The notes under the pieces: generated by a model | What the model saw: the letters and a program-made list of their open reading frames with translations, nothing else | Database searches by the model: none | Told to the model about the DNA's origin: nothing | Part shown: piece after piece, positions 1 through 28,684 of the stretch | Layout: each line of letters opens with the position of its first letter | Numbering within the stretch: position 1 is the stretch's first letter | Translations under genes and position numbers: made by a program | Origin: Alternaria dauci | Taxonomy: Eukaryota > Ascomycota > Dothideomycetes > Pleosporales > Pleosporaceae | NCBI RefSeq assembly: GCF_042100115.1 | Contig: NC_091276.1 | Span: 310,001 to 374,000, forward strand | Direction of reading: 5' to 3' | Length of the DNA stretch: 64,000 nucleotides

Positions 1-1418
1 ATTAGAGCGGAGAGACTAGGATTATATATAATTATTATATACGTTCGTCTTTACAAACGCGGCTATAGCGTCTATCTAATTATGTAGCGCGATTATTATC
101 TTAAGTCTTTTACTTACTAGTAGAAGCCCTTCTACCTAACTACGGTAAGGTATATTTATAGTAAGTTTCTGTCTATCTTTATTACAGGATCTAATTTGTA
201 CTAGGTCTACACTACTACATAGTTACTATACTACCTTCCTTTCTATATTACTTAGATTTAGCGTTAACTCGTTGTCCTAATAAGCGATTAAATAAGAAGA
301 CTACACTATTCTTTCTCCTATAGAATAATAAGAAATAGTACTCTCTAAATAGTATAATAATAGACTTAGAAGAGTAGGGCATATTAAGCGTAACGAAGCC
401 TTCCTACTAAGTGCGTAGAGCTAGGGCGTTCTAATATATTTAACACTAGGAATTAGTGTATAGCTGTAAGAGGATTTAGTTAATAAACTATACTGTATTT
501 AAGGTTAAAGCCTTATGTATCCCGTTACGTATATAATATACGATAACCTACTTATACTAACTTAATATAAGAAGATTGAAAGTTCGCAGTAGGTAATACA
601 AATAGGCAACTGCTGTCTTAAACTAATCTTAGAGTGTTATATATACTAAGTCTTCCCTAGGGTTAAAACTGCGCTTTAGCAGTAAGCCTGCTCTTTCTAC
701 TATCTACTATTACTCTTTACCTTGTCTTAAACTTTACATACCTTCCTTCCCTTTTTTTAATTCCTGCTCCTGCTACTGCAACTATAGCTATTAGATAGAA
801 AAGTAAACTCTTACTAAGTTTAAACTAAATAATCTCCTAGAATAATGCCTTGTTGCCCTAAGGAAGCTCTACTATGCTGTCGCTAATTTCTCTAGCTTTT
901 GCAGAATATGTAGGCAAGTTAAGGTAAAGACAAGGTATTGTTAAAGCTGATATCTAGGAAGCGTGTCGCTTTAGATTAGAATTGCATATTGAACATGCTA
1001 GACTTAAGTTAAAGATTTCTTAGGCGGCTCAAGATGTGTGCAGCAGCTGTACTTAGCAACAATTAAGCCGGCCTAATAACCTGGCCTAACAAGCCTGACC
1101 TATTAAGCTTTATTAAGCTAAGCTTCTCTCATACTAATTTGTTAGCAAGCCAAGCTGAGGATGGAAGCTAGCTTGATCCGCTTGATCGGCTTGGTTCGTG
1201 GGGGTACGGGGAGTTCGAGCATGCGGGAGCCCGGATTAGGCCTAGTTACTTTCTTTTCGCTACCATATTTTTTTTTTTTAGCTCTGTTTTGCTGGGGTAA
1301 CTGACACCTCGCGCCATCCCATCTTTTGCAACCTCGTACTCCATCCAACAGCCGCCAAAAGTACTCAATATTGCTGCAACCTTTTGCTCCCATCGTCGTC
1401 GTACTATTTAACTAACGT
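1..1418. other. AT-rich RIP-degraded flank, no gene seen
   Basis: No supportable gene. Bases 1-1,020 have the RIP look (TA-rich, few CA/TG, frequent TAG). From about 1,020 to 1,418 composition is more balanced, with several AAGCC/GGCTT words. A short minus-strand ORF at 1,142-1,393 has no recognisable domain. The stretch lies just outside the left end of the large inverted repeat that begins at 1,419. Confidence 0.6.
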
Positions 1419-2112
1419 CGGTCACTGCGTAGCGAGACACATTGCGAAACGAGACACCACAGACACTCTCCAACATAATAAACTCTATAATAGGTTACAA
1501 GAATAGATATTCTCGGAATAGGAGCCTTACGCTATAAAGTCTATTCTCTCCTAATTTCTTATAGAAATAAGTTCAGCTTACTGTGTAAAATAAGAATTTA
1601 GTATAAGCGTTACGCAACCGCCTCGCTTTAGCTAGTAGTAAGTGCGTTAAAAGCTTATATATCTTATTAAAAGTCCGTTAGCTTACACCTTATTATATTT
1701 TTATCCTATCCTAAGCACTGCGCTTAAGCTTAAAAGGTTGTTGTGCTTCTGTGCTAATTCTAAGTCTGCCTGCTAGAAGTGCTAGATAAGGAGGACCCGT
1801 ATACCTAGCTACACTCCTATGCACTTGCAGTTTCCGCTTTGCACACGCCGCTTAACTGTCATCCCACACTCACCCCTGTCTCGCTTAGCGCATGCTTTTC
1901 CTCAATCGCTCTAGCTCTCGTCAGCATGACCCTTTCCCCTTGCCTACGGAAACCGCTGGACTTGTTTCTTACGAGTATTAGTAAGCATCTTACAGAGTAT
2001 TGTATAGTTCTTCTAGCACAAGCAGTCTTTACAGAAAACAGAAGATAAACATTAGATATAATAAGTAGAGCATAGCTTTAATATAGAGTGGGCAATAAAG
2101 AAAAGCGCGCTG

Positions 2113-5100
2113 TCAACGCAACTTCTTCACGAGTCTCCGTATCGATAGTCCCGAGCTCTTCTTCCTTCGGTCGTGCTGTGGTGCAGACCTCTCTCCTATT
2201 GTTGCGAGCTTCGACTGCCCTTCCCTCTCTCTACTAGCACTCGGCAAAGCGTCTATCTTAGCGACTATGCTCATGCACCTCTCGCTCGACTGACCAAGCA
2301 CGCTGGTCAGCCCAGAAAGAGCCCTTGTGTACACCTCTCTAGCTTTGGCACTCTCTGCTTGCTTCGCATAGAGATCGCCCATGTTCTGTAAGATGTTGAG
2401 TGCTGGCAGGTACTGCTGGACGCGAATACTGCTGAGTGCCTCATACCCTCGCAGCGCCCGCTCGTACATCTGCTCCGCCTCGCCCAGCCTGCCTTGGGCC
2501 GCGTAGAGAAGGCCCAGGTTGTTAACCGTACTCAGTGTCGACGTGTGGCTGACCCTAAGTGCCTCCTTAGTCCCTCGTAGCGCCCGCTTAAGCATCTACT
2601 CCGCCTTACCTAGCCTACCTTAGGCTGCGTAGAGAAGGCCTAGGTTGTTAACTATATCTAGTGTTAACGCGTAGCTAACCCTAAGTGCCTCCTTATTCCC
2701 TCGCAGCGCCCGCTTAAGTATCTACTCTGCCTTACCTAGCCTACCTTAGTCTACGTAGAGATTGCCTAGGTTATTAACTGTGTCTAGTGTTGACGCGTAG
2801 CTAACCCTAAGTGCCTCCTCCCTACCTCGCAGCGCCTACTTATACATTTTTTCTGCCTCGCCTAGCCTACCTTAGTCTGCGTAGAGAAGGCCTAGGTTAT
2901 TAACTATGCTTAGTGTTGACGCGTAGCTAACCCTAAGTGCCTCCTTGTTCCCTTATAGCGCCCGCTTAAGCATCTGCTCTGCCTCGCCTAGCCTGCCTTG
3001 GTTCTTATAGAGGTTGCCTAGGTTGTTGACCGTGCTTAGTGTCGACGTGTGGCTGACCCCGAGTGCCTCATACCCTCGCAGCGCCCGATCGTACATCTGC
3101 TCTGCCTCGCTCAGCCTGCCTTGGTCCTTGTAGAGAATACCCAAAAGATGTACAGCATCCAGAACCGTCTTTCGCTCTTCGTCCTCGTCGGCGTCTCCAC
3201 CACTACCTCCCTCAGCTCGCCCACCCCAAACTGCCTCGCTCTTCGCTATCTGTCTAGAGCACGCCTGCGCGTGTAGGAGAAGTCGGCGTTGCAGAATAGC
3301 GTAGTCGCGAGTAGAGCTCTCTGGCACAGTCCAACCAATAGTAACCACCGCTAGTTAACTTAGCTCCGCTGCGAAGCGCTGGCCTTGCGAGTGATACGCC
3401 TACTAGTGCACTACTAGGTGTGTTGCATAGCTCCTCGTCTCTTACACCTGCTCCGCTAGAGAGTAGTTATACAGTAGCTACATTGCTCTACTAAATTTAG
3501 TCTCGCTGCTCGTAATGTCTCTAACCTACCCTAATAGTATCTTTGCAGCTATAGTAGACCTCCTATATACTATAGTAAATAAGCTATACTAAAGGTCCTT
3601 ATTATTAAGAAATGACTAAAGTAGCAGTAGGTTAGCTATATATTTATACCTCTCGCGGATTACCTAATATGAGATAGCCTACGTCGTCTACACGCTGCGC
3701 TCTAGGTAGTCCTAGAGCAGCGTATTAGCTAGGTCGTCTAACTGTATTAGCTCGCTCTACTGCTACTTATAGAACCGCAGGTACGTCGCTAGCCCTACTC
3801 CGCTCTCCTATAGGTACGCACCCGCCTAGGCAATAGTAAGCGGGAGGCCGTCTAGCATCCGTAGTAGCCGCTCGCTCTTAGCTGCATCTATAATTGTACT
3901 GTTAGCTCTACTAACCTGTCTCTAAGTACTTACTACTTCTAGCTTACTATCCTTCTTCTTATACTAGCTCTCTAAGATAGCCTATCCCTACTCTATAGAC
4001 ACCTTACCTAGCTGCTGCGACTCGCCTAGCTGCTCTAGCCGTGCTAGCTAAGTCGTTACTAGCACTAACCTATAGTCTGCGCTAGAGAAGTAGCGCCTTA
4101 CGTTATACGTATTAGGGTTACCCCCTTACGCCGTGTACTCTTAGTTAACGTTATTAATAATAAGTAGCTAGGTAGTGTTATTAGGCTATATAAGCTAGGC
4201 TATAATATCTTTTACTACTATATTAGTATTAGCGCTGCTGTTACTAGTATACCCTTTACTTACCTTAGAGATCTAGCCTTATAGGACTCTACCTACGCAG
4301 CTTATAATACTGCGCTTAAGGATATCCTTACTACGTCCGTCTAGCTAGAGTACTAAGCTAAACTAGCGATAATATTATTGTATAAACTTAACTACTAGCT
4401 ACGTCTTACCTATACTACTAAGACTACGTAGGATATATATTCTTTATTAGCTATTCTACTAATATCTAGGTAGTAGTACGCGTTCTATCTCTACTATCTC
4501 TACTAGTTAGTCTATAAAGTAGTTAACTTAAGGTACACCCTTAAGGCTAAAGACTATCTAATACTCTCTAAAGTCTATAAATATTTTAGCTATTAGCCCT
4601 AAATTAAGATAATACTTATACTAATACTCTTAGCCTATAATACTACCTATATACGCCTATATCTACCTATACACCTCCTATAAGCTAATATACTACTACG
4701 TTACTACTACTATCTCCTTAACCTTCTTCGCCTCTTCTAGCCTAATATCTTCTAGCCCTTATGCTACGTTAAACTAGTAGTACTACCCTATACTATCTAG
4801 TAGCCCCCGCTTACGCTAAAACTACTTAGCCGTCTACTCTATCTCTATAGCTATCGTAGCTAGTGTCTAGCTAATATTAAAGATATTATCCTTAAACGCC
4901 TTTAGTAATAGTACCCCTATTCTAATTAAGACTAGACACTTAACTTTACCCTCTAGTAGCTTAGGGCCCTACGCTAGCTATACCTAGTCTTATACCTCTT
5001 ACACTAGGTTATTTACCCCTATTACCCTATCTATAAACTCCTTACTATATCTACTAACTATAATTAGGTTAAAGAAGGAGGTTACTACTAAGGTAGCCTA

Positions 5101-5650
5101 GTAGGCCTCCTATATTATTATACTATTAAGTAGGTTACTACTACTACGTAGGGTCTTATAGCTTATAAGATAGATAGTCTTACTTATCTCCTTACTTATT
5201 ATATATATAAAGCTATAGTAGTTAGCCTTTATTCTAATAAGAGTATATCCCTTACCTATATTTTATACTCTACTTTAGACGTATCCTTAAGTAGCGTATC
5301 CTCTAGTAGGCCTTACTACTTTACTACTTCTTTTACTACCTACGCTAGCTCCTCTACGTTAAACTAGCCCTATACCTAGCCCTTAACTATTACCTAGTAC
5401 TATATCTTATAGAATATATAGTTAGAGAGTAATAGGTATATAGTAATATAGTTAGCTACGCTTATCCTTAGCTAGCCTAGTATAATAGTAATTAGCCTAG
5501 TATATTAGTATAGCTTATAGTATACTTCTTAACTATTTACCTACCTACCTATACTTATCCTACTAATTATATTAAAGTAGTTATATAGCTTAGGCAGCGC
5601 GTTAGGGTTAACAGCCTCTATTAGCTACTTAAGGATTATTAGGGCGGATA
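2113..5650 (-). pseudogene. NLR-like NB-ARC-TPR gene, RIP-inactivated (left copy)
   Basis: One minus-strand reading frame runs from about 5,650 to a stop at 2,113 without an evident frame change, interrupted by TAG/TAA at positions that look like former Trp or Gln codons. The P-loop of an NB-ARC/STAND NTPase is at 4,402-4,425 and still reads SLSSIGKT. Downstream, 2,113-3,348 encodes about seven TPRs of roughly 42 residues (LGNLYKNQGRLGEAEQM and similar), of the kinesin-light-chain kind. Adjacent repeats are very similar. The segments 2,113-2,595 and 2,953-3,348 are still open. The N-terminal domain is not identifiable. Fungal NB-ARC-TPR proteins are implicated in non-self recognition and programmed cell death; that role is family knowledge. 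This copy cannot make full-length protein. Confidence 0.82.
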
Positions 5651-5868
5651 GGCTATATATACTACTACTATTAAGGGTAAGTAGGCGTATATTACTACTA
5701 GGTATGGTATATATATATTAGGTAGTAAGAGGAGGAAGAGGAAGAGTACTAAAGTTAAGTTATTATAGGATAGGGCGTAGTATCTATTCTATATACTAGC
5801 AGTTATCTTATGTAGGTATTATAGTGTAGTATTTCTACCCTTAGCGCGTATAGCTAAAATAGCGCGCG

Positions 5869-5950
5869 TCTCTACTATCTCTACTATCTCTACTATCTCT
5901 ACTATCTCTACTATCTCTACTATCTCTACTATCTCTACTATCTCTACTAT
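5869..5950. repeat. 9-bp minisatellite (CTACTATCT)n, left arm
   Basis: About nine head-to-tail copies of a 9-bp unit lie near the inner end of the left arm. The mirror copy in the right arm (9,562-9,643) has the same length, so the number of units is the same in both arms. Confidence 0.95.
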
Positions 5951-6356
5951 CCTGTAGCTGCTAGTATACATAGTTAGTAGAGGAGCGTAGGCGAGGCGGA
6001 GCGGCAGGTGGACGTGGGACGTGCTGGCTGCATGTCGCTCGTCGCTCGTCGCCCTTCCCTGTGCCCCTAGTTACGTTTGCGGTCTGGCGGGCGTTGTTTG
6101 GCTGCGTCGTGCTGGCCTACCTGCAGATGCGTTTTAGATCGGATACATGCAGATCGAGATGTCGCGCGCCGGATCCATCCACAAGCGTCTGATGTTGCGG
6201 GGTTTTATAGATGTGATCGTTGTGCTGTACTGTACGGAACATCAGCGCTCGCATACTGAAGCTTCGATGTTCTTCCATCTCGCCAAGGCTGTCGCAACTT
6301 CACGTCGTACCGCGCAAGACGCAATGCTCTCTGCTGCTACTGTACGCGTCCTCGCC

Positions 6357-7334
6357 ATGGCGCCTAGACTTGCAGCATCGCAGCACGACATGATAAGAGA
6401 CATGATCTCCAGTAAGTCCCTCAAAGCCATCGACATGGCGGCCGCAGCTGGTTGCAGCGACCGCACGATTCGCAACATCCGGTCCAACCTCCACTGCTTT
6501 GGGTCTTCTAGAGCACCCTTCAACGGGGGAGGGCGGCGTCGGCAGATAACGCCAGTTATGCTGGACGCCCTGAAAGCGAGGTTGTTGGAGAAGCCGGGCA
6601 TGTACCAAGACGAGATGGCCCTGTTCTTGTACGATGAATTTGAGGTGCTGGTGAACAACTCTGCAGTAAGCCGTGCCCTAGCATCCATAGGTTGGACGAA
6701 GAAAGCCACCCGTCAGATCGCCAAAGAGCGAAATGCTGATCTCCGAGACTACTACCTCCATAACCTCTCCGCCTTCCAGTCGCACCACCTCATCTACGTG
6801 GACGAGTCAGGGTGCGACAAACGCATCGGCTTCAGGCGCACCGGCTGGTCACCGCTCGGTGTTGCTCCGGTGCAGGTAGCCCAGTTCCACCGCGACCATA
6901 GGCACCAGATCCTCCCCGCGTACACCCAGGATGGTGTGCTCTTCCATCGCGTGTTCCAGGGATCGACAGACAGCGCCGTGTTCGAGGACTTCATCGAGCA
7001 GCTTCTCCACAATTGCGGGCGCTGGCCGGAACCCAAGTCTGTGCTGGTCATGGACAACGCCTCGTTCCACCACAACGAGGGGGTCAAGGAGCTATGCCTC
7101 CGCGCAGGTGTGAAGCTAGTGTTCTTACCGCCCTACTCGCCAGATCTGAACCCCATCGAAGAGTTCTTCGGAGACTTGAAACGCTTCATCAGGCGGAACT
7201 GGGTGGAGTATGAAAGCAACCCTGCCCAGGACTTTGAAGCATTTCTTGACTGGTGTATCAGTGTCGCGGGCGGCAGGGTGGACAATGCAAGAGCACACTT
7301 TCGACATGCAGGCGTCACTGTTGAGACAAGCTAA
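6357..7334 (+). CDS. Tc1/mariner-superfamily (IS630-like) DD34E transposase
   Basis: The ORF is intact. The frame is open from 6,147, but the Met at 6,357 (MAPRLAASQHDMI) matches the usual family start and gives 325 residues. Order of parts: N-terminal helix-turn-helix (about 20-60, including AAGCSDRTIRNI), a GGGRRRQITP linker, then the DDE domain. Catalytic residues are visible as YVDESGCDKR (first Asp), LVMDNASFH (second Asp) and LNPIEEFF (Glu), with 34 residues between the last two. The enzyme would cut and paste DNA at TA sites. It lies in the single-copy loop between the two RIP-decayed arms and shows no RIP stops. No short terminal repeats were found immediately around it, so the arms themselves may be the ends. 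It converges on the 436-residue gene, with 119 bp between stops. Confidence 0.93.
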   Translation: MAPRLAASQHDMIRDMISSKSLKAIDMAAAAGCSDRTIRNIRSNLHCFGSSRAPFNGGGRRRQITPVMLDALKARLLEKPGMYQDEMALFLYDEFEVLVNNSAVSRALASIGWTKKATRQIAKERNADLRDYYLHNLSAFQSHHLIYVDESGCDKRIGFRRTGWSPLGVAPVQVAQFHRDHRHQILPAYTQDGVLFHRVFQGSTDSAVFEDFIEQLLHNCGRWPEPKSVLVMDNASFHHNEGVKELCLRAGVKLVFLPPYSPDLNPIEEFFGDLKRFIRRNWVEYESNPAQDFEAFLDWCISVAGGRVDNARAHFRHAGVTVETS

Positions 7335-7453
7335 GTATAATGTGATAAGTCAAGTAAATCTATAAGCGGGGTTCCGTGCGCCGTAGAGTTATAAAGTCCA
7401 ACTGCAATCACTGAGAACTTTGTCTGTGTACCTATACTAGAAGATTCTCTGCA

Positions 7454-8764
7454 CTAGTTCTCCTGCTCCCTGTTGCACGTCGACTTGTGGAGCTCTGCCC
7501 ATCTTCCAATGTCGCTGACATATCGACGTGCTACGCCTCTCTTCACTCCGTTCTGGATAAAGAAGTCGTAGTCTTGATCCTCGTGCAGCTGCTCCAAGTC
7601 GAGCATCTCCAGCAGGGTAATGTCGCAAGCTTTCTGGTACTCCATCTTCTGCGCCTCGTCGGCGACGTTGGACTGCTGCCATTGACTGTAAGCTACGACG
7701 GCTAGATCGCGAGGACCGGGAATGTCCAGACTTATGCGTCTGGAAGCTCGCTCCATGGAGGATGGTACACTAGAGGTAGACGTTGTCGAAGGAGACTGGC
7801 CAGAGTGCGGGGGCAAAACGTTCGTGATCGTGATCGGCGGGAGACTCGCCCTAGACACACTCCCGCCTGCAGCTTGCCGATCATGCCGCTGGTCTTCTTC
7901 AGCGTATAGCTGCTCACGGATGTCCTCGGGAACGTCATTGTGAGTATGCAGAACATGACCCTCCTCCACGAGTTGGATCAAAGCCTTGAGGTGGTGCGTC
8001 TGCAGCTTGTAATGCTTCTTCCCGAAAGGGTCACGCCAGCAATGTGGCCCGCGGTTGCACGGCGGCCCAGGACACCGCATCAAAGCATACACTTCGCGCC
8101 ACACAGAAGCACTCGCACTAGTCTCCTGCTCTGCATCGAGCTGCGAAGCCTGGTCAGCAAGCATATTCTGCGTCGCGGACGAGCCTCGCTTGTTGCCACG
8201 GTTTCTTGCTGCTGCTGACGATGGTACCAACTCTACATAGTTGAAGGACAGGTCTATTCGGAGCTTCTTACCAGAGCGGAGTAGCTCACCCCACTGCATG
8301 AGCTGCCTCTCTACTAGCAACCAGTCGACATCTATGTCATCGAACCTCTTGGTCAAGTCACGCTCTGAACGATCGTTCACAGACGCGACGACGCTAGTAT
8401 CATCGCACTTTACGTGTCTGCCCTGTGGCAGCTTTCTGCTTAAGAGCTTATCCACCTTGGACCTGAGACAGAGACGCCAGTATGCAGAAGGGGCCAGAAC
8501 TACGTCTTGCTCCGTGTCCTTGGAAAGCGTTCTGTTGTTGACAACCACTTTCCACTCGATCGAGTAGCGCAGCCGGCTTGGTACGTCCTCGTCGTAGCTG
8601 TTGTGCTCATCCCACTCGGTCAGCGGGAGGAAGCCGAGCCTGCTTGAATCTGATGTTGTCGCTTCCTGGCCATCGTCTACAGTACGATGACGCACCGCGC
8701 GACCTGCTGCTACATAGTCAGGCACGGAAGGGGTCTCTAGCGCTGCGATCCAGCGCGCCGCCAC
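7454..8764 (-). CDS. Unrecognised 436-residue protein with a Cys/His cluster, paired with the transposase
   Basis: The ORF is intact and without RIP damage. I do not recognise a named family. The N-terminal half has a mixed alpha/beta look (RLRYSIEWKVVVNNRTLS; DVDWLLVERQLMQWGELL). The middle has a compact cluster with cysteines spaced C-x4-C-x5-C (CPGPPCNRGPHCW), followed by KKHYKLQTHHLKALIQLVEE, which could bind a metal ion. Next comes a low-complexity Ser/Thr/Pro segment (ITNVLPPHSGQSPS region), then a helical C-terminus (YSQWQQSNVADEAQ; FFIQNGVKRGVARRYV). It converges on the transposase inside the same loop, so a role as a transposition accessory or cargo is possible but is inference only. 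No transmembrane segment or signal peptide is apparent. Confidence 0.75.
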   Translation of the reverse strand: MAARWIAALETPSVPDYVAAGRAVRHRTVDDGQEATTSDSSRLGFLPLTEWDEHNSYDEDVPSRLRYSIEWKVVVNNRTLSKDTEQDVVLAPSAYWRLCLRSKVDKLLSRKLPQGRHVKCDDTSVVASVNDRSERDLTKRFDDIDVDWLLVERQLMQWGELLRSGKKLRIDLSFNYVELVPSSAAARNRGNKRGSSATQNMLADQASQLDAEQETSASASVWREVYALMRCPGPPCNRGPHCWRDPFGKKHYKLQTHHLKALIQLVEEGHVLHTHNDVPEDIREQLYAEEDQRHDRQAAGGSVSRASLPPITITNVLPPHSGQSPSTTSTSSVPSSMERASRRISLDIPGPRDLAVVAYSQWQQSNVADEAQKMEYQKACDITLLEMLDLEQLHEDQDYDFFIQNGVKRGVARRYVSDIGRWAELHKSTCNREQEN

Positions 8765-9462
8765 CGATTATATGTCGCTAGGCGTATCGTACTACTATGT
8801 TGCGTCGTATGCGGTATCGGTTTGGGAGGAGAAGGAACTGGTCGCCATTGGGAGGCTGCTCAGGCTGGTGTGCTACGGGTTTGTACCTGCGTCAATCGAC
8901 TAGAGAGATACGGATCAGATCATCCTCAAACGCAGTGCTTTCGCTAGAACTAGACGCTGTACAATTCTGTATAGTACGATGCTGTGCGTATAGGAAAGCT
9001 GGAGTATGAGCGCTGGCTCTCGCAGAGCGAGAGGGGAGTCGCATGGAAGCCACTCGTCATAAGCTGCCCCTTGTCAACGTGATCCACCAATGACAGGACG
9101 CGAGTGGAGAGCTGTGCAGCAGTAGCATGACACACGCTCGCGATACATGATCTCTCAGCATGAAGTTAGGGGAGAGATGTCGTGGATATTCAGCTATTTC
9201 TCTTCGAACAGCAAGGCTGCAGCAAGTACGAAGAACCCCGCTAGGAGCCTGCGTCGATCGGATTGGCGTTATGCAAAGCGCTACGCGGGCAGGTCTTAGT
9301 TCAAGCAGCCGTGCCACGATCGACGCAAAGCCCGGACGCGATCCTAGAAATTGAACACATGGAGTGCATTAGCTCACGGCAACTCTAATGAGACCTCCAT
9401 GTACAGCTCAGAGCGCATCGCATTGGGTGGAGCCTACCGATAGGCGACAGATGACACCAGCG
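8765..9462. other. Loop sequence upstream of the 436-residue gene, no gene seen
   Basis: Composition is balanced and without RIP marks. It presumably includes the promoter of the minus-strand gene that starts at 8,764. The several small ORFs show no conserved motif. The right arm begins at about 9,463. Confidence 0.5.
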
Positions 9463-9561
9463 ACAAGCAACAAACGACATGCAGCCAGCACGTCCCACGT
9501 CCACCTGCCGCTCCGCCTCGCCTACGCTCCTCTACTAACTATGTATACTAGCAGCTACAGG

Positions 9562-9643
9562 ATAGTAGAGATAGTAGAGATAGTAGAGATAGTAGAGATA
9601 GTAGAGATAGTAGAGATAGTAGAGATAGTAGAGATAGTAGAGA
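9562..9643. repeat. 9-bp minisatellite (AGATAGTAG)n, right arm
   Basis: Reverse complement of 5,869-5,950, with the same length. A plus-strand ORF running through it (a repeating IVE peptide) is an artefact of the repeat. Confidence 0.95.
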
Positions 9644-9863
9644 CGCGCGCTATTTTAGCTATACGCGCTAAGGGTAGAAATACTACACTATAATACCTAC
9701 ATAAGATAACTGCTAGTATATAGAATAGATACTACGCCCTATCCTATAATAACTTAACTTTAGTACTCTTCCTCTTCCTCCTCTTACTACCTAATATATA
9801 TATACCATACCTAGTAGTAATATACGCCTACTTACCCTTAATAGTAGTAGTATATATAGCCTA

Positions 9864-12800
9864 TCCGCCCTAATAATCCTTAAGTAGCTAATAGAGGCTG
9901 TTAACCCTAACGCGCTGCCTAAGCTATATAACTACTTTAATATAATTAGTAGGATAAGTATAGGTAGGTAGGTAAATAGTTAAGAAGTATACTATAAGCT
10001 ATACTAATATACTAGGCTAATTACTATTATACTAGGCTAGCTAAGGATAAGCGTAGCTAACTATATTACTATATACCTATTACTCTCTAACTATATATTC
10101 TATAAGATATAGTACTAGGTAATAGTTAAGGGCTAGGTATAGGGCTAGTTTAACGTAGAGGAGCTAGCGTAGGTAGTAAAAGAAGTAGTAAAGTAGTAAG
10201 GCCTACTAGAGGATACGCTACTTAAGGATACGTCTAAAGTAGAGTATAAAATATAGGTAAGGGATATACTCTTATTAGAATAAAGGCTAACTACTATAGC
10301 TTTATATATATAATAAGTAAGGAGATAAGTAAGACTATCTATCTTATAAGCTATAAGACCCTACGTAGTAGTAGTAACCTACTTAATAGTATAATAATAT
10401 AGGAGGCCTACTAGGCTACCTTAGTAGTAACCTCCTTCTTTAACCTAATTATAGTTAGTAGATATAGTAAGGAGTTTATAGATAGGGTAATAGGGGTAAA
10501 TAACCTAGTGTAAGAGGTATAAGACTAGGTATAGCTAGCGTAGGGCCCTAAGCTACTAGAGGGTAAAGTTAAGTGTCTAGTCTTAATTAGAATAGGGGTA
10601 CTATTACTAAAGGCGTTTAAGGATAATATCTTTAATATTAGCTAGACACTAGCTACGATAGCTATAGAGATAGAGTAGACGGCTAAGTAGTTTTAGCGTA
10701 AGCGGGGGCTACTAGATAGTATAGGGTAGTACTACTAGTTTAACGTAGCATAAGGGCTAGAAGATATTAGGCTAGAAGAGGTAAAGAAGGTTAAGGAGAT
10801 AGTAGTAGTAACGTAGCGGTATATTAGCTTATAGGAGGTGTATAGGTAGATATAGGTATATATAGGTAGTATTATAAGCTAAGAGTATTAGTATAAGTAT
10901 TATCTTTATTTTAAGACTAGTAGCTAAAGTATATATAGACTTTAGTAAATACTAAACCCTCTTTAGCCTTAAGGGCGTACTAAGAGTAAGCTATTTTATA
11001 GACTAACTAGCTAAGATAGTAAAGCTTAAACGAGCGCTCCTACCTAAAGACTAGTAGAGTAGCTAATAGAAGATTTACGTGCTATATAGCCTTAGTAGTA
11101 TAAGTAAGACGTAGCTAGTAGTAGAGTTTATATAGTAATACTACTACTAGTTTAGTATAGTATTTTAGCTTAACGGACGTAGTAAGGACAGCCTAAAGTA
11201 GAGTATTACTAGCTACGCGGGTAGGATCCCTAAGGGCTAGATCCCTAACGTAAGTAGAGCCTATACTACCTATAGTAGCGTAGACGTTAATATAGTAGTA
11301 AGAGATATTATAAGCTAGCTTACGTAGCTAGATAACTATACTTAACTACTTATCTTTAATAACGTTAACTATAAGTATAGTAAGCGAGGTGCTAATCCTA
11401 ACGTATATAACGTAAAGCGCTACCTCTTAGGTGCCAACTATAGCACTATACTAATTATAATATAACTAGTAAAGCTAGAGTAGCTAGGCGCGTTGTAGTA
11501 GCTATATAAGGTAGATAAGAAGTAAGCGTAAGTAATCTTAGGAGCATAGTATAAGAGAATATATAGTAAGGTAAAACTTATTAATTACTTAAGTTAAGTA
11601 GCTATAGCTAATAAGAGCGCTATAGATCTAGCTAAGAGTAATTACTTACTATAGCTACTTAATAGCCTACTATTAGTAATTACGTAGGCAGGTGCCTATC
11701 TATAGGAGAGTAGGGTAGGACTTAAGATATACCTACGCTTCTATAAGTAGTAGTAGAGCGAGCTAATAGAGTTAAATAACTAGGGCGACACACTATTATA
11801 GGATTACCTAGATCGAAGTGTATAGATAATATAGGCTATCTTATACTAGGCTATCTACTATAAGTATAAGTATATAGTAAAACTACTACTACTATAGTTA
11901 TTCCTTAATAATAATAACCTATAGTATAGGCTATTTACTATAGTATATAAGGCCTTAGTAGGTACTATAAGAATACTATTAGTGTAGGTAGGAGAAATTA
12001 CGAGTAGTAAGTTAGCGTTTAGCTAGGCTATTTAGCTACTATAGAACTACTTACTTATTAAGGTAGTAGAAGTGATAGTAAGCTATATAACACACCTAGT
12101 AGTATATTACTAGGCGTACTACTACTAGGGTAAGTAGTTAGGGAAGGAGCTAGGCTAGATTATAGTTATTACTATTAGGTAGGTAGTACTAAATTAGTTT
12201 ATTACTAACTTATTAGCTTTATAATAGCGCCTTCTCCCCTATACCTAAGCGTACTCTTCGTAGGTGCTTAAGAGCGAGCTAGGACAGGGCTTAGAAGGTT
12301 CTAAATAGTATAAGCTCTACTTTAAAGAGGGTAAAGAAGTTTAAATACTACTTATTATAATATGTAATATAGGCGTTCTCTATACTAGTTAAGGTAAATT
12401 AGCGGAGGTAGCGTTATTATATAAGTTAGCGTTAAGAGGTAAAGAGGAAGTCCTAGGGCTAAAGCATATATTAATATTAGAGATAGTAGGTAGCCTTAGT
12501 AACGTCTATATAAACTAAAGTAGGCTAGTAGAGGTAGATTATATAATTAAGTAGGTATTATAGGGATTTAATAATATACTACTACTAAAGCACGCATTAA
12601 GACTACGGATAGTTAGTAATCTAGGTATAGTATATAAGAAACAGGGTAAGCTAGTAGATATAGAACTAATTTTTAAGTAGGTACTATAAGAGATAGAGGA
12701 GACACTTAGGCCTAAGTATATATTAATATTAATAGTATTAAATAATCTAGGTAATCTCTATAAGAACTAAGATAAGCTTACAGAAGTAGAGTATATACTT

Positions 12801-13761
12801 AGACGGGCATTAAGAGGGAAGGAAGAAACACTTAGGCCTAACTATCCTTTAACGTTATAGATAATTAGTAATATAGGTATTATCTATAAAAAACAGGGTA
12901 AGCTAGTAGAAGCAGAATAGATGTACTAGTGGGCGCTTTAAGGGAAGGAGGAGGTACTCAGACTAAGACGCATAGAGACATTAGAGATAGTAGGCAATCT
13001 AGGTAACCTATATGTGGAACAAGATAAGCTACTAGAGGCGGAGAACATGTATAAGCGGGCATTGGAAGGGTTTGTTGAAGCCTTAGGAACTGGACATGCA
13101 TCAACACAGCAGATAGTCATCGAACTAAATGCTGTCCGTCGCAGACAAGGCAAGTTTGAGGAGACAGGTCAAATGTTCGAGTAGGCACTACATTGTTGGC
13201 ACCAGGCAATTGGTGCCGCGTCTGTCCAGTGCACTGGCTCTGCAATTATCAGAATACCGCCAATTTGTCCTCATAGTCAGGATAAGATCCTGGTCTATAA
13301 TAAGATGATCGTCTCCTATAACTTAACTTGTAGAGCACCACATGTAGTATGATATTAGAGCAAGAGAGCAAGAGAACTACGCAAAACTAGGCGTAGTCAG
13401 CAGTTTGGGCATTTTCTACGCGGAACAGGGAAAGTTGAGAGAAACAGAGCAGATAGACCAGCGAGCGCTGCTAGGGTACGGATGTACAGTTGGGAACGCG
13501 TCTGTGCCACAGCAAATGCTTACACTCAACATATTAGATGGCATGGGAAGCCTGTGCATTGAGCAAGAGAAGCAGGCCAAGCACAGGATGTGTACTCAAA
13601 GGCACCACCTAGGCTGCAGGGCGACCTTAACTAGTCAAGCTACAGATGCAGAAAGCTTCAGCGTGTCTGCTTCACAAGCAAGCAATGTTGAGCAAACTTG
13701 GCCGCTAGCTGTTGACGATGTTTTTACCACAGTAGGAGGAGAAAACGTCAAAATGCTGTAA
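9864..13761 (+). pseudogene. NLR-like NB-ARC-TPR gene, RIP-inactivated (right copy)
   Basis: Frame 0 can be followed from about 9,864 to 13,190. FNVEELA at 10,149, the P-loop at 11,088-11,111 (now SLSSISKT, with the Gly before Lys changed to Ser) and the TPR unit MYKRALEG at 13,047 all fall in the same frame. Many TAG/TAA stops interrupt it. Downstream of the P-loop, VF*LNGRSKDSLK fits the conserved NB-ARC segment that follows it. The TPR zone spans about 12,300-13,190. After about 200 bp without a match in the left arm, a last TPR-like piece is open in another frame at 13,405-13,761. This is the inverted duplicate of the left-arm gene and is more mutated than it in the TPR part. Confidence 0.8.
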
Positions 13762-13942
13762 GATGCTTATTAATACCGTTAAGTAACAAGCCTAGAGGTT
13801 TCTGCAGAGAGAAAGCGAGGAGTCATGCTGATTGAAGCTAGAGTGGTTGGGGTAAAGCCTGGGCTAAGCGAGATAGGGGTGAGCGTGGGATGACAATAGA
13901 GCGGGGTTTACAAAGCGGAAACTGCAAATGCATGAGAGTGTA

Positions 13943-14328
13943 AAAGCAGCTTAGTTGTAACCTATCGCTGCTGACGCTAGACCTGTGGCTGCGTGGCTGC
14001 GTGGCTGAACGGCGCTTTTGCCAAGTGCTCCAGGACACCCGAAACCCGGCTCGGATTGGGAGCAGGGCCAGGTTTAAAGGCCCTGGCGCATAGTTCATGT
14101 TAACGAACACACCCAGCGTTAAAGCCGCAACCGCAACCAGCTTCCGATACAGCTATCGTGCAACTTTAAGATACAGTGTAATACACGACTATAGCTAACG
14201 CGAAAGCTTGTATGCTATAGAGATAAACCGTCGCGCCGCCCTACAGCTCCGCAGACCCGCCGTTCGTCCCTCGTTTAACCCACCACGTCCTCGTACTTCT
14301 CGAGCACATCGCAGCTAATACATATCCG
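13943..14328. repeat. Left terminal inverted repeat of the HET-ANK element
   Basis: About 386 bp pairing in reverse complement with 17,772-18,152. Shared words include AACCTATCGCTGCTGACGCT, GCACGACTATAGCTAACGCG (one difference) and CCGCAGACCCGCCGTT. Differences are mostly C/T and G/A, as expected from RIP or ageing. The left TIR keeps more C and G than the right. Confidence 0.88.
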
Positions 14329-14745
14329 CATGGTACAGAATACCGAGGTCTGAGTCTAAGCCGCAGCAAGTGGAGTGCGTGTCACTAGAGGAACGCCGTC
14401 GTTGCACGCTCGCGGCAAGGTGGAAGGGTCTGCATATCTTAGGGATACAGCTGTCGTACGGTTACATACCGAACGACTCCTTGCATGAGCACTAGAGCAC
14501 TGCGATCTCTAAGGATGATAAGAGTTTGGATGGCTAACGATGGCTAGGTAGGATATGGCAGAGTTCTAGAACAGGAACTAGCCGCCAGATTTTAGGCTAT
14601 GCTTAGCAAGACGTTACGCTATCTAAGGGTGCATACCGTCCTGCTATCCTCCCCAGTCCGCCTTGTGAGCCACTTCTTACAACACTGTCAACTTATATAA
14701 TAGTTGGCTGTAGGTTAGGAGGAGAGTAAGTAAAGATATATATAA
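14329..14745. other. Non-coding interior of the HET-ANK element, downstream side
   Basis: Nothing recognisable. It lies 3' of the HET-ankyrin gene and probably contains its 3' UTR and terminator. Confidence 0.4.
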
Positions 14746-15036
14746 TTAGGAGAAATTAGGGTGCGACTGCAGCTGCTTAACTAGCTCCTCGTGCCCGTTC
14801 CGTGTCGCCCACGATAGCGGCGTCCGTCCGTAATCACTATCCTTCGAGTCGACGTCGACCTTGCCTGTCTCTAGCAGCAGCTCGACTACCGCTTCGTGCC
14901 CGTTCTCTGCCGCCCATGATAGCGGCGTCCGTCCGTGCTTATCCTTCAAGTCAACATCGACCTTGCCTGTCTCTAGCAGCAGCTTGACTACCGCCTCGTG
15001 CCTGTTCTCTGCCGCCCATGATAGCGGCGTCCGTCC
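14746..15036 (-). pseudogene. Ankyrin repeats cut off from the HET gene by one nonsense codon
   Basis: The frame continues directly past the stop at 15,037-15,039 and encodes about three more ankyrin units (GRTPLSWAAENGHEAVVELL and variants) to a natural-looking stop at 14,746. The stop sits at a D-x-G junction where the sister repeat has Tyr (GATTACGGA against GATTAGGGA). The change is C to G on the coding strand, which is not the RIP transition. Either the protein is truncated, or readthrough or an assembly error hides the full array. Confidence 0.8.
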
Positions 15037-16951
15037 CTAATCACTATCCTTTGAGTCGACGTCGACCTTGCCTGTCTCTAGCAGCAGCTTGACTACCGCT
15101 TTGTGCCCGTTCTCTGCCGCCCATGATAGCGGCGTCCGTGCGTTCCTATCGTTTAAATCTGGATCGATACCATGTTTCGCAAGTAGTAAGTTTACTAGCC
15201 CATAGTAGCCGTTCCCTGCGGCCCACATTAGCGGCGTCTGACCGTCGTATTGGCTTCCTAGCGTGTTCGAATCCACTTCTCCAAGCGCAATCTCATAGCC
15301 ATTCACAGCCTCTTGGAGCTTCTCTTCTGCCTCTTCATTCTCTTCCATATCTCCCAGTATTAATGCAACGTTCCATGTTCTGGTTGCGTTATCCAGGTAC
15401 CTTTCTGACTCTGTCTTTGAACATTCTAACACTGAAATGTTTGTTCTTATTAACGTTTCGTAGCTTTCTTGATCTTGATGTTTCCCGAGGGAACTTCCCC
15501 AGTTCCAGACAAGTAGGAAATCGCGGGTGAAGCTATTTTCCGATTGGGAGATTGTTGGCCACTTAACATGTCTATTCTTCGTTGGTATATCCTCTGGGGG
15601 AGTAGCTGCAATCATGATAATGGCAAAGTAATCTTTACACAATCTGGCAATCATAGGCTTTGAAGCTCCTTGAAGAAGGCAGATGATATCTCCATTTTGG
15701 ATGGATTTTGCCGAGGCCTGGAGGGTCCAGTGAGCGCTCCACTCTCCCTTTTCTTCTGGCTGCCTTGGTATGTTTTTGAAGGTGACATCTACACCCTGTT
15801 TGTCACCTCGAGCCATACCGCTCTGTACTGAGGTGACCTTACCGAGAACACAGCCCTTACTCTTGATTACTGCGATCTCCCTATCCCGCCAAGTCTCCAC
15901 AGATATCTTTTCAGAGAGAAGAAACTTGGTTAGTCGCTGCAAGATCTCCTCCCATGGAACTCCGTAGTTAGGCAATAGGCCAAATTTGCTGAGATCATCC
16001 GAGCTTATGCCGAGCAAGGCATATACCTTATCGTGGCGCTTGGTAGCCTCATGGGCATGATACATGTCTATCAGCTCACCTAGTGGGCATATATCCAGAG
16101 ATGACCTGCCTGAACTACCCATCGAATAGGCAGGTCTGAAAATCGCTTCTCTGATTAGGTAGGTTACCGAACGGATCAACCCTTGCAAGTCTGGGCGAGC
16201 TTTGTAGAAATCCTTCAATGAATCAACACCTAAGCAGAAGGCGTATCCGTCAATCGTCTTAGATCCACACATGATCAGGATATGTCGAGCTGCGGCAACT
16301 TCTTGGAGTATCTACATTACGTTTAGTAATTCGTACGAATGTTATAAGTGTCTATTCCCATGCCCAGATGCGCCGAAACCACGGTCGTTGAAGCAGCGCA
16401 AGAACTGCTCGCTGAATCCTCTCGCTGTCTAAGGAGTTTGTAGACTTCTTGGCCCCAGCAAGGCGTGTCGCTTCGAGCACTAGATCGCTATCGTCTGCCG
16501 CCACTCCAAGCCAAACGATTACACGATTTGCATGACCATAGATTTTCGCCATAGACTGAATCTGGTGCTCCTTCTCTTCCTGATTCGCTTGGTCGATGCA
16601 AATAGCATCTACCCAGACGGTTCGAGCGATATCGCGATCCCGAAGGCGTAATAGGGCGGCGTAGAGGTTTGTTGTAACAGACAAGACATGACTGTCTATG
16701 AAGATAGGTACAATCTCATTTAGGTTGCCCCATACGTAGGATAAAGCTTCGTATGGGAGAGTACCTTTACCTGGCTCTAAAGAGTAATTGAGGAGTTCGC
16801 ATTCGATAATAGCAGTCTCGTTCTTGTTTGGAATTAGGCGAAGCAAGCGAATGTTATCATTCCCCGGTGGAATCGAAAAATGGCAGTACGGGATACTCTT
16901 CACCACCTGATGGTATATCGCAGCCCATGTCACAGCCCATGTCGTTTCCAT
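15037..16951 (-). CDS. HET-domain protein with C-terminal ankyrin repeats (transposon cargo)
   Basis: Two exons are inferred: 16,951-16,364 and 16,311-15,037. The 52-nt intron begins GC rather than GT and contains TTACTAAAC as branch site. It restores the HET motif across the junction (PWFRRIW | ILQEVAAARH). The product is about 620 residues. Visible HET blocks are LPYEALSYVWGN, TVWVDAICIDQANQEEKEHQ and the RRIW-QEVAAAR block. A middle region follows (KVYALLGISSD), then a helical stretch and two ankyrin units before the early stop. HET domains trigger heterokaryon-incompatibility cell death in filamentous fungi (family knowledge). The frame is open from 17,008, but the first in-frame ATG is 16,951. 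Composition is not RIPed, unlike the surrounding arm, consistent with recent arrival. Confidence 0.86.
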
Positions 16952-17771
16952 CGCCTCTTCTGGCACAAATCGGGCCCGGTCCAGGTTTTCGGTAAGGTTT
17001 GTGAACAATAGAGTGAGCTAGGAGTGTGCAGTTCCACGCGCAGATAGGTAGCTAGGCCGTGAGGGAGAGCAGAACCTTAGGTCTCTCAGCTGATGTCTTG
17101 GCACCTAAAGTCCCCTCCTGTGTCTTGTGCCTTTGTAGGTGGGGTAGCGCAAAGTGGCTGAGCCTTTCGCAATTCAATTAAGTTAAGCGTGTTCATATTG
17201 CATGAGGATGGTTTGGTACTTAATGTCGCCCCCACTAGCAAGGAAGGCGGCCGACCCGCACCAGCCACACCCTTGCCATGAACGTCGGCACTGGATCGCA
17301 TTGCGAAGAGATACAAGGGTCATTGTCGATAACAGGACGGCATGCAGCTTTAGATAGCGTTGTACCTTACCATGCGTAGGTACTACTAGATCTCTGCTCT
17401 ACCCTACCAAGCGCTCATGAGCATCGACGGCCCAAACTCCTCATCACCCCTAAAGATCAAACTAAAGCACCTCTCTACGGCCCTAATGATTGCAGTGCTC
17501 ATGCAAAGCCCCATTCGTTGTATGACCGTGCGACAGCTGTGTCCCCAAGGTATGCAGACCCTTTCCCCCTTTAAGTGTGCGTGCAACGACGGCGTCCTTC
17601 CAGTAACACTCACTCCGCTTGCCGAAGCCTAGACTCGGATCTGGGTGTTCTATATCATGCCAGCTAATCACTATCTCCTAACATGCCCGCTGTGTGAGAC
17701 CTGCCCACCCTGTTCTTTGGGCGCCACCTAACTCACGATATTCTCCTTCAACGAGCTGAAGCGATATCTAG
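16952..17771. other. Upstream region of the HET-ANK gene inside the element
   Basis: About 0.8 kb between the gene start and the right TIR. Small ORFs on both strands show no conserved motif and no DDE or helix-turn-helix signature, so I see no transposase remnant. It presumably holds the promoter. Confidence 0.5.
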
Positions 17772-18152
17772 CCGTTGTTTAGTATATGTATCGGTTGCGG
17801 TGTGCTCAAGGGGGACGAGGACATGGTAAGTTAGACGAGGAATCAACGGCGGGTCTGCGGGGCTGTAGAGCGGCGCGACGGTTCATCTCTATAGCATTAA
17901 AGCTTTCGCGTTAGCTATAGTCGTGCATTACACTGTGTCTTAAAGCTGCACGAAGGCTGTATTAGAAGCTAATTGCGGTTTTAATGCTAGGAGTGCTTAT
18001 TAACATAAGCTATACGTTAGGGCCTTTAAACCTAGCCCTGTTCCTAATCTGAGCTAGTTTTTGGATATCCCGGAGCGCTTGGCAAAAGCGTCGCACAGCT
18101 ACACAGCCACAGATCTAGCGTCAGCAGCGATAGGTTACAGCTAAGCTGCTTT
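17772..18152. repeat. Right terminal inverted repeat of the HET-ANK element
   Basis: Inverted partner of 13,943-14,328. It is slightly more AT-rich, with a few small indels (for example fewer copies of a GGCTGCGT word). Confidence 0.88.
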
Positions 18153-18545
18153 TAGCTAGGTGTACGGGGTCCTTATCGTTTAGCACTTCTAGCAGGCGGA
18201 CTTAAAACTAGCACAGAAGCACGACAGCCTCTTAAGCTTTTACGCAATGCTTAGGATAAGATATTAATATAATAAGCTATAAGTTAACGGACTTTTAATA
18301 AGATGCATAAGCTTTTAACGCACCTACTACTAGCTAGAGTAAGGCAGTCGCGTAATGCTCCTACTAAATTGTCGTATTGCATAGTAAGCTAAACCTATAT
18401 CTTAAAAAACATAAGGAAAGAATAGGCTTTATAGCGCAAGGCAACTATTCTGAGGATATTTATTCCTGTAGCCTGTTGTGGGGTTTGTTATGGGGAAGTG
18501 TCTGTGGTGTCTCGTCACACAGTGCGTCTCGCTACGCAGTGACCG

Positions 18546-21500
18546 GTATTACACCTAAAACAGGCCTTACAGAAGAGCAGATGGACGCGTTGTATGAGCG
18601 GAGCAGTTAGGATAACGAAACTTAACACTATGGACAACTATTGTATATGCAATCAAGCTCATCAATCCAGCTTCAAGCCAAGCCGACGATTTTGACCTAT
18701 CAAGCCTACTAAGACAAGCCTACAACACCAAAAACGCCAAAAAGCCAAGCTCACGGCCACGGCCGGCTTATTGCCATCTCTAGCAGCAGCTACCCCAACT
18801 CCGAGCTCCCAGCTCTAACCCCCACCAACGCACCTTTAATACTTTATCTCCCACTCTACAAGTGTCCGCAGTCTTACCTAGTGCACTTAGAATCTCCCTA
18901 AAATCTCCTAGCTAGCCTGCTAGTGACTGCTATTACCATCTCGGCTTCCTCTAGCCCGCCTCGGCAACCTTAGCCTCTGCCCTCGCGACCCCTACTACAG
19001 ACGGTCCTTACGATCCCTACGTCCTACCATCCTTAAAATACACAATCCTTACAGCACAGAACCCTATAAACTAGGCTGTTAGCTGGTTCTGCGGCTGCGT
19101 TATTACTCCCTGCTAGCTCCTTCTCAGCCTTGCCCTCATCCTTATTTCTGCCTTAAGCTGCCCCTCCCCTCTTCCTCTCTTACTGCTACTAATACGACTG
19201 TCTAGATGCTTACAGACATCTAGACTAAAGAATATCGTAACAGCCTTACAAGTCTTTCTTCTATAATGTGTAGTAGCGCAATTTTACTGCGCTAGGCGAC
19301 CTATTAGGGAAGCGTTTACATATCTCTTACCACTCTATACCCTGTTTATCCTTTAATAAGATTAAACGCACTTCATCTAACTCTAGCTATAGCTTATGCG
19401 TTCTTCGGCTGCATTCTTTTATAACTTCCTCTCTATTCTTACCTTCTTCATCGTCGTCGTCGTCGTCTAAGTAGTCCGTTCCATAACTAGAAGCGTCACT
19501 ATAGGAACTACTCATCCACTTCGCATTTAAGCCTCTGCGATTGCAGAGGTTTAGGGCACTGTCTTCACACTAGTACCCTAGCAACATCTATAAACCCAGC
19601 GATAGCTAGATTATATGGGTAACTTTACCTTATTCGCTAAGAAACTTATAACCTAGGGCTACAAGATTAGGAGACCAATTTAAGTTACTATAATATAAAT
19701 TTACTGTCACGATTAAGGAGCCGTTTAGAATAGCGCAGAGCGTAAGATCAGTTATCTAACAAGACATACTAAGGCCAGATTCATAGTTAATGTTAGTTCT
19801 ATCGCTAGCCGTCGTGTCTAGAGAGTATAATCGTGGGGAGCAAAACTAATCCCCTTTATCAATATTAGGTTGTCTTAGAATTAACTTTTATTATAGCTAG
19901 CTTAACATTACTTGTTACGGTGCCCTCGTAGGCACCATATTATAGTTTAATAGTCTAAGAGCAGTGTTTAGTCGCTTACGTCTCGTCTCAGGCACCTAAG
20001 CCCTGCGTCTACGCTATTAAGATCTCAATAGAGGGATGTTACGTACCTCGTCGTAGCTAAGTTCCTCTTTAAAGATTTCCCTAGCTTTACTACCGCTATC
20101 TTATCTGTTTATCACACGCCTATCAGATTCCTAACTAACATCTTATTCAAATTCTAGTCCTTCAGAAGGAGTAGTAGATCCTCTTACCTATAGTAGCTTT
20201 TCAACTATTCCCTAGGAATAGGCGTTGTTACTATCTTCTACAGCGCGGAGGTCAGTTAAAGGCAGGACTAGGCTCATCGCACTATCGCCTTCGCGGCCAG
20301 CACCTAGGGGACTAGGGATAGGACTGTCACCGGCGCTAAGATCTAACAGAGGCGTTGAATTAGGCGTAGATACAGGTTCGAGTATAGGACTCTGTGCTTG
20401 TCGCTTAGCTAGCCTATACCGCTTTACTAGATAGAAGACTTCCCGCTCTAGATCTAGTATAAAGCTCAGAACCGCTGCTAGGGGGATAGTTGTAGAATTA
20501 ACATTCGAAGATTAACGCGATCGTTTCCGTGTCACATCAACGATGCTAAAGGACGTCTCCAGTAATCTCTCTTTAACGGTATCAGCGTAGTTCTATACAC
20601 TAATTAGATAGTATCACTCACCATAACAAGGACTTCTAATATCCCTTATAGAGAAAGCGCGCTCTACAGCTGCGCCGAGATTACCGCGCCAACTAACATA
20701 GTTCCCTTCTTTACTAGCAGTCAGGTCATAACTGTTCTCCTTAGGGTCAGAGGCCTTATTACTAGGCTAAAAGTGCGCAGCGCTGTGTTATTCTTTAGCC
20801 GTACCACTCTCCTTAGTTACGACGCGTGTGGCGTAATCCATTACTCCCTCGTCAAGCAATCCACGGCAAAACTAGTAGCGACCGTCGCTAGACGCGAGAT
20901 TATACGTGTTTATTTAATAGTCTACTCTAAATAGACCGCACGTCGCTAAGCCTATCTCCTCAACATCTATAATATAGCCTACTACCTAGACCTGTAGTGT
21001 CTGTTAAGAGACAGTATAAAGGTCACCCTCAGTATCTACACACAAGTTAGTCTAGTTCAAGTCGCTTACATAACTAACAAGCAAACAATACCTTAATGTA
21101 GCAATCCTAAACTATACGCCGCCTCCTCTACATAATCTCTACAAGTAGTATACCCTATAACCTTAGCCTTAGCCTTAGATTTAGTACGCTTAAGTAACGT
21201 AGGGTCGTAATATTTAAACTAAGATAAAGTGGTCTAAGGAACTAAAGTAAAAGTAGCTATTATAAGATTATAATAGGATCTAATAGACTCTAGCTAAGGA
21301 AACAGTATAGTGTCTAGGAGTTTAAGTAGAAAATAACTCACCTAGCTAACGACTTCTCTAGGGGAGAAGACTTCTAGATAATAACGCTAAATTAATTATA
21401 GTACGCTATCCTTAGTGTCTCTAACACAACCTTCGTTATTTAACTATATCCTACTCTTAACTTAACTATTACTGCATAAGCTACTAGGGTACGTACGACT

Positions 21501-28534: not shown

Positions 28535-28684
28535 CTTTGACCACCTTAGATATTAGTGGACGTTTAACCAACAGGACAGCCCGATTAAGATTCAACAATA
28601 GCTTATCAGGGAAACGCGCAGAACAACAGGGCTCAGGGTCAGGGACCCTCGACGCCAGCACGCCCTACCCCAGAAAATGATAAG

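What the first reader, a model, noticed from the sequence alone, without database searches (positions are those of the whole stretch)
13941..18154. A TA-flanked inverted-repeat transposon whose only gene is a HET-ankyrin incompatibility-type gene
The ends are defined to the base by comparison with the empty site in the opposite arm (near 1,806-1,832). TIRs of about 385 bp, a TA duplication and a single host-like gene with no transposase mean that a fungal allorecognition-type gene appears to have been moved as cargo of a Tc1/mariner-like non-autonomous element. This would be a direct route for spreading HET genes through genomes. TIRs and empty site are seen in sequence; mobility by mariner-type enzymes is inferred from TA.
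Basis: partly seen in the sequence, partly recalled or inferred. Interest (0 to 1): 0.88.

Follow-up and report, generated by a model that had tools for sequence, protein, structure and literature searches.

The report
Single HET-ankyrin gene between transposon ends
A fungal gene of the type used in self/non-self recognition sits alone between two long inverted repeats in a block inserted cleanly at a TA dinucleotide, as if carried by a small cut-and-paste transposon; one insertion is well supported, but repeated spread of such genes by this element is not shown.

Summary
The 4.2-kb block 13941-18154 is bounded by TA, has inverted repeats (385 columns at 82%, fading out near 0.7-0.8 kb), and is absent at the matching TA of the opposite palindrome arm (1810-1811). 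Inside is one recognisable gene: a HET domain plus ankyrin repeats, with a GC-AG intron and a TAG stop inside the ankyrin array. No transposase was recognised inside.

The repeat is not confined to this locus, but its other copies found are damaged. At C8 an eroded copy is joined to the same flank at the same junction, so it is no clear independent insertion. At C9 about 620 bp of the repeat sits beside unrelated sequence without a HET gene; its outer end is cut off by another repeat and no partner was found.

Best reading: a non-autonomous, TA-inserting (Tc1/mariner-type) element that captured a HET-ankyrin gene. Gene capture by Tc1/mariner and hAT elements in fungi is published (PMC3538342), so this is a new variant of a known kind. 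Repeated spread of HET genes by this route is not shown: one HET copy, no intact second copy. Whether the 'empty' arm is ancestral or secondarily emptied stays open.

The parts
13941..13942 (.). TA at the left end, one copy of the 2-bp target duplication
   Evidence: overlap of empty-site matches
13943..14325 (+). left terminal inverted repeat, well-conserved part; extension 14328-14493, weak to 14648
14746..15036 (-). open frame after the TAG (96 codons and TAA): further ankyrin repeats and a C-terminal end resembling those of relatives P0001, P0002 and P0005
15037..16311 (-). exon 2 of the HET-ankyrin gene, ending in TAG inside the ankyrin array
16312..16363 (-). 52-nt intron with GC donor and AG acceptor; predicted junction RRIW|ILQE as in relatives P0028 and P0106
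16364..16951 (-). exon 1, HET domain; in-frame ATG at 16951
17784..18152 (-). right terminal inverted repeat, well-conserved part; extension 17660-17494, weak to 17328; most of 17661-17783 has no counterpart in the left copy
18153..18154 (.). TA at the right end, second copy of the target duplication
1810..1811 (.). single TA at the matching place in the opposite palindrome arm (site without the element)
1419..1811 (+). flank F, arm 1; matches 18545-18153 (arm 2) and C8:2292320-2292717
18155..18545 (-). flank F, arm 2, joined to the right repeat; the same junction exists in eroded form at C8

Best explanation
A non-autonomous cut-and-paste DNA element of the TA-inserting kind (Tc1/mariner superfamily by its target site), with about 0.4-0.8-kb terminal inverted repeats, that acquired a HET-ankyrin gene and inserted into flank F of an older palindromic repeat. 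A transposase supplied in trans would bind the repeats, excise the element and paste it at TA. Shown: the TA-bounded insertion, the repeats, the gene, two further damaged repeat loci. Inferred: transposase type, capture from elsewhere, mobility. The repeats have since diverged mainly by transitions; that the ends can no longer move is a guess.
For: TA-bounded ends and a single TA at the matching site; repeat loci at C8 and C9; the C9 copy loses homology near 17500, close to where the left and right repeats of this element part; the HET-ankyrin gene has no close paralogue here, while the seven best relatives, 79-87% identical, come from records without organism name (120 of 1540 listed), i.e. 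no parental copy is seen; a Tc1-like DDE_3 transposase frame without stops at 6138-7334 in the loop of the same palindrome, the only stop-free one of the 4 DDE_3 places found.
Against: No independent second TA-bounded insertion: the C9 repeat lacks about its outer 40 bases and no partner was found in C9:173000-212800, nor at C8 within 2283000-2312700; the C8 copy shares the same junction. No transposase recognised in the element. By eye the ends resemble neither the palindrome ends nor the loop ends. TA alone is a weak classifier. Fot1/pogo-type (DDE_1) transposases were not searched for in the genome.
Confidence: 0.7

Rival explanations
1. The element was already in flank F (of the palindrome or its ancestor) before the arms duplicated; arm 1 later lost it exactly, by excision or by conversion from an empty copy. 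(A rival on polarity, not on the kind of element.)
For: F joined to the repeat at the same base in arm 2 and at C8. In F, transversions private to C8 19, arm 2 9, arm 1 7, so the arms differ at 16 and C8 from them at 26 and 28. In the repeat, over 230 shared columns, transversions left-right 4, left-C8 8, right-C8 10.
Against: C8 may simply evolve faster; three sequences do not fix a root. Arm 1 has a clean single TA with no footprint.
Confidence: 0.25
2. Insertion happened once in arm 2 after palindrome formation, and C8 is a later copy of that end; arm 1 is the untouched site.
For: Clean single TA in arm 1. F found at only 3 places, two with the repeat and one without. Counting all sites, the C8 repeat is nearer the right repeat (74.8% of 230 columns), its positional counterpart, than the left (69.3% of 238), though transitions can converge by erosion.
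Against: By transversions C8 lies outside the C5 pairs in both F and repeat; with C9 as outgroup the site pattern expected here (right with C8 against left with C9) was seen 0 times, the other two pairings 2 and 1 times. In F by all sites C8 is nearer the empty arm 1 (81%) than arm 2 (74%).
Confidence: 0.4
3. The HET gene came in by recombination or end-joining between two dispersed repeats, not by a transposase; the TA is coincidence.
For: No transposase recognised inside; only single repeats were found at C8 and C9.
Against: Both borders at TA, outer 59 bp 93% alike, exact empty site.
Confidence: 0.12
4. The block is cargo of an eroded Starship.
For: The Starship Horizon carries ankyrin and heterokaryon-incompatibility genes (PMC9594970, passages); one degraded DUF3435 captain-like sequence lies on the same contig at C5:127859-129179.
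Against: It is about 195 kb away and full of stops; the TA-TA borders already explain the block.
Confidence: 0.05

Closest known systems
Transduplicating Tc1/mariner element of Pyrenophora tritici-repentis (PMC3538342, section 20 read)
   Same: A non-transposon ORF between the inverted repeats of a Tc1/mariner DNA transposon in a filamentous ascomycete
   Different: [quoted passage not shown] here one copy, no transposase recognised, HET-ankyrin cargo, long repeats
ToxhAT (PMC6737239, passages)
   Same: A notable gene carried between inverted repeats, in a transposon-rich region
   Different: About 14 kb, 74-bp repeats, no identifiable target duplication; here 4.2 kb, about 0.4-0.8-kb repeats, TA duplication
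Starships Horizon and Icarus (PMC9594970, passages)
   Same: Heterokaryon-incompatibility genes as cargo (with ankyrin genes in Horizon)
   Different: 143 and 294 kb; Horizon has a tyrosine-recombinase captain; here 4.2 kb with none
Tc1-like elements with long repeats, e.g. Tc3 and Minos (recalled, no call)
   Same: TA target, repeats of hundreds of bp
   Different: Those encode a transposase

Membership tests
Tc1/mariner superfamily | TA target-site duplication | tested here: met
   (one insertion only)
Tc1/mariner superfamily | terminal inverted repeats | tested here: met
Tc1/mariner superfamily | DDE/D transposase in the element (autonomous members) | tested here: not met
   ORFs of 80 aa or more in the block: the two HET exons and two without Pfam hit; it can only be non-autonomous
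Tc1/mariner superfamily | ends shared with a transposase-bearing partner | tested here: inconclusive
   no other match to the 25-base end at up to 3 mismatches in the own genome; eroded or foreign partners would be missed (the C8 copy was missed by that search)
gene-capturing TIR element (transduplication) | host-type gene between inverted repeats | tested here: met
gene-capturing TIR element (transduplication) | several copies of the cargo, or a parental copy in the genome | tested here: not met
   other matches to exon 2 are 34-49%; no HET gene in the fetched C8 and C9 stretches
Starship | DUF3435 tyrosine-recombinase captain at one end | tested here: not met
   the only DUF3435 place found, degraded, is about 195 kb away
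hAT (ToxhAT-like) | 8-bp target duplication (recalled) | tested here: not met
   2-bp TA
HET-domain protein | HET domain PF06985 above cut-off | tested here: met
   114.7 bits against 22.5
HET-domain protein | incompatibility or cell-death function | not testable with these tools
   needs expression

The most novel reading that the evidence does not exclude
The repeat family is a small shuttle that picks up different single genes (HET-ankyrin at C5, possibly a small secreted cysteine-rich ORF at C9) and moves them by TA-specific transposition between genomes, with exact excision as in arm 1, so that allorecognition genes travel one at a time.
Probability: 0.13. Interest if true: 0.8.

Novelty: new variant of a known kind. 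Interest (0 to 1): 0.5.

Why it matters
HET-type genes are patchily distributed in fungi and how they move is, to my knowledge, largely open. Giant Starships are one documented carrier. A 4-kb TA-bounded element with one HET gene would be a far smaller carrier and makes a testable prediction: the same repeat ends around other single genes in other fungi.

Tried and rejected
A plain BLAST search with the repeat and a 25-base end pattern gave only this element's own two ends. Searching with the inner right-hand stretch 17000-17790 gave only this element. The other loci appeared only through flank F and the eroded C8 copy. These searches miss eroded copies: with the C9 repeat, returned C9 and C8 but not the C5 element, so more copies may exist.

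One search was meant to search with the C9 repeat but I had the locus orientation wrong: it hit a high-copy repeat beginning near C9:203353 (56 rows; 40 of 225 candidates scored). One search is the corrected search.

A partner repeat at C9 was sought by purine/pyrimidine-coded alignment over C9:173000-212800: true copy 443, next best place 131, 104 in the upstream 20 kb; best in one shuffled sequence 120. None found. The same scan over the fetched C8 stretch gave the known copy at 247 and otherwise at most 119; over window 1-45000 without the element at most 121. Flank F was not found at C9: 71 at best, against 308 for the true copy at C8.

'Small secreted ORF as cargo' at C9 is not established: no start codon seen by eye, no Pfam hit at E up to 1, no homologue at E up to 0.001 among 7 candidates.

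Classical CpA-only RIP as the cause of repeat divergence: transitions dominate (51 of 58 substitutions in the 385-bp part, 19 of 28 in the inner part), but the C precedes A in only 13 of 51 and 7 of 19; transitions in all contexts fit better.

The 27-base end pattern in viral contigs: 0 matches. The genome-contig collection (bacteria and archaea) was not scanned.

Literature: among the papers listed I saw none whose title, abstract start or read passages describe a HET gene as the sole cargo of a small TIR element; searches were (listings; two searches found 0 papers), open-licence PMC only. PMC3538342: section 20 and passages; PMC9594970, PMC6737239, PMC12153272, PMC12257634: passages; the others: listings only.

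Full report
What is there. The block 13941-18154 begins and ends with inverted repeats: 385 columns at 82% (13941-14325 against 18154-17784), 93% over the outer 59 bp, continuing with gaps to 14493/17494 and weakly to 14648/17328. Between them one recognisable gene lies on the minus strand. Exon 1 (16951-16364) encodes a HET domain (E 6e-33), exon 2 (16311-15037) the rest plus ankyrin repeats. The predicted intron (16363-16312) starts with GC and ends with AG; the resulting junction RRIW-ILQE is the one seen in relatives P0028 and P0106. A TAG ends the frame inside the ankyrin array after 620 residues; the frame beyond is open for 96 codons and ends much as relatives P0001, P0002 and P0005 do. 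So the protein would be HET plus a short ankyrin array. The two other ORFs of 80 aa or more have no Pfam hit.

The insertion. The first 18.5 kb of the window is a palindrome: arms about 1419-6037 and 9475-18545, apart from the block. Flank F plus what follows it in arm 1 match the two sides of the block in arm 2, overlapping in exactly TA at 1810-1811. The flanks read ...CCTAGC TA CACTC... in both. This is a TA duplication by insertion, or its exact reversal.

Other copies. The genome (34.9 Mb, 10 contigs) has no other repeat copy that plain BLAST with this element's left end or a 25-base pattern finds. Through flank F a third F copy appeared at C8:2292320-2292717, and there F runs straight into an eroded copy of the repeat, recognisable for about 250 bp, at the same junction as in arm 2. 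Searching with that eroded copy gave C9:203169-203354. Alignment shows about 620 bp of repeat at C9, homology ending near 17500 and unrelated sequence beyond; about the outermost 40 bases are replaced by a high-copy repeat beginning near C9:203353. tblastn finds no HET gene in either fetched stretch. No partner repeat was found at C9 over 39.8 kb or at C8 over 29.7 kb. The searches miss strongly eroded copies: with the C9 repeat did not return the C5 element.

What the copies say. The C8 copy is not an independent insertion unless the same TA was hit twice. Counting transversions only, in F the arms differ at 16 places and C8 from them at 26 and 28 (sums of private sites 7, 9, 19). In the repeat, over 230 shared columns, left-right 4, left-C8 8, right-C8 10; against C9, over 488 columns, left-right 19, left-C9 40, right-C9 35. 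Taken at face value C8 split off before the arms did, and then arm 1 would have lost the element exactly. But three sequences cannot be rooted and C8 may evolve faster; the 4-sequence test had only 3 informative sites (2, 1, 0). By all sites, transitions included, the C8 repeat is nearer the right repeat (74.8%) than the left (69.3%), as expected if it copies the arm-2 end, while in F C8 is nearer the empty arm 1 (81%) than arm 2 (74%). I leave the polarity open, slightly in favour of arm 1 as untouched because no excision footprint is seen.

The gene's origin. In this genome the nearest other matches to exon 2 are 34-49% identical, nearly all over the ankyrin part (15 rows, of which 3 are this gene). 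In the protein collection the top seven by E-value are 79-87% identical, all from records of source 'jgi' without an organism name. The first named one is Elaphomyces granulatus at 60%; partial named matches lower in the list reach 73% (Leptodontidium sp.) and 71% (Paraphoma), each over 78% of the query (1540 proteins at E up to 0.001 among 6643 candidates, best 120 listed). So no parental copy is seen here; capture elsewhere, or loss of the parent, is implied but not shown.

Who could move it. The loop of the palindrome holds a stop-free 398-codon frame (most listed relatives about 325 aa) for a Tc1-like DDE_3 transposase (E 7e-31), the only stop-free one of four DDE_3 places found in the genome, one of the four being below the family's cut-off, with named relatives in Aspergillus, Penicillium and Alternaria. 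That superfamily inserts at TA (established knowledge). Its own ends could not be separated from the palindrome arms, and by eye I see no likeness between those sequences and the element's ends, so this is a candidate and no more. Other transposase families such as DDE_1 were not searched.

Erosion. Between the repeats 51 of 58 substitutions are transitions, 13 of 51 in CpA context. The gene has a composition close to that of the genic part of the window (GC 0.49 against 0.55, TpA/ApT 0.84 against 0.63), the repeats less so (TpA/ApT 1.57 and 1.40). Erosion has thus hit the repeats more than the single-copy gene, as expected where duplicated DNA is mutated.

Against the literature. Transduplication in fungi, including an ORF between Tc1/mariner repeats in a family of 46 members, is published for Pyrenophora tritici-repentis (PMC3538342, section 20). 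ToxhAT carries ToxA between 74-bp repeats without an identifiable target duplication (PMC6737239, passages). Starship Horizon carries HET and ankyrin genes (PMC9594970, passages). In the listings I saw no HET gene alone in a TA-bounded element (open-licence PMC only).

Verdict. A real, well-delimited insertion and a plausible gene-capturing TA element; the strong claim of a spreading route rests on a single copy and is not shown.

Noticed in passing
window 1419-18545: Large palindrome with a 3.4-kb loop. The inner arms 4731-6037 / 10781-9475 (1307 bp) are identical while the outer arms differ by about 18-22%: an abrupt edge that suggests recent gene conversion (or an assembly effect).
   Followed up: partly
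window 6138-7334: Stop-free Tc1-like DDE_3 transposase frame in the palindrome loop, single copy by protein search; relatives up to 91% identical over part of it in unnamed records.
   Followed up: partly
window 7454-8767 (minus): 437-aa frame beside the transposase with no Pfam hit, possibly the second ORF of a two-gene Tc1-like element.
   Followed up: no
window 1413-1414 and 18550-18551: TA at both outer ends of the palindrome next to a shared terminal sequence (CGGTCACTGCGTAGCGAGAC), so the palindrome may itself be a TA-inserted unit; the third F copy at C8 has CG there instead. No empty site was tested.
   Followed up: partly
window 2113-3137; counterpart in arm 2 about 12400-13760: Array of TPR repeats (TPR_12, E 4e-13 for 2113-2595), a repeat type known from fungal NLR proteins (recalled), broken by TAA/TAG stops upstream; the arm-2 ORF 13405-13761 has no Pfam hit.
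   Followed up: partly
L029:9138-9479 (C9): Cysteine-rich frame with a signal-like start beside the C9 repeat copy; no homologue found and no ATG seen by eye.
   Followed up: partly
C9:203353 onward (L036): High-copy repeat, about 40 other places among the candidates scored, lying across the outer end of the C9 repeat copy.
   Followed up: no
C5:127859-129179 (L065-L067): Degraded DUF3435 (Starship captain-like) sequence, the only such place found in the genome.
   Followed up: no
window 28589-33960: Ty3-type retroelement pieces (aspartyl protease, reverse transcriptase, Tf2-like domain) between AT-rich blocks (24-31% GC) at 22-28 and 36-44 kb.
   Followed up: partly
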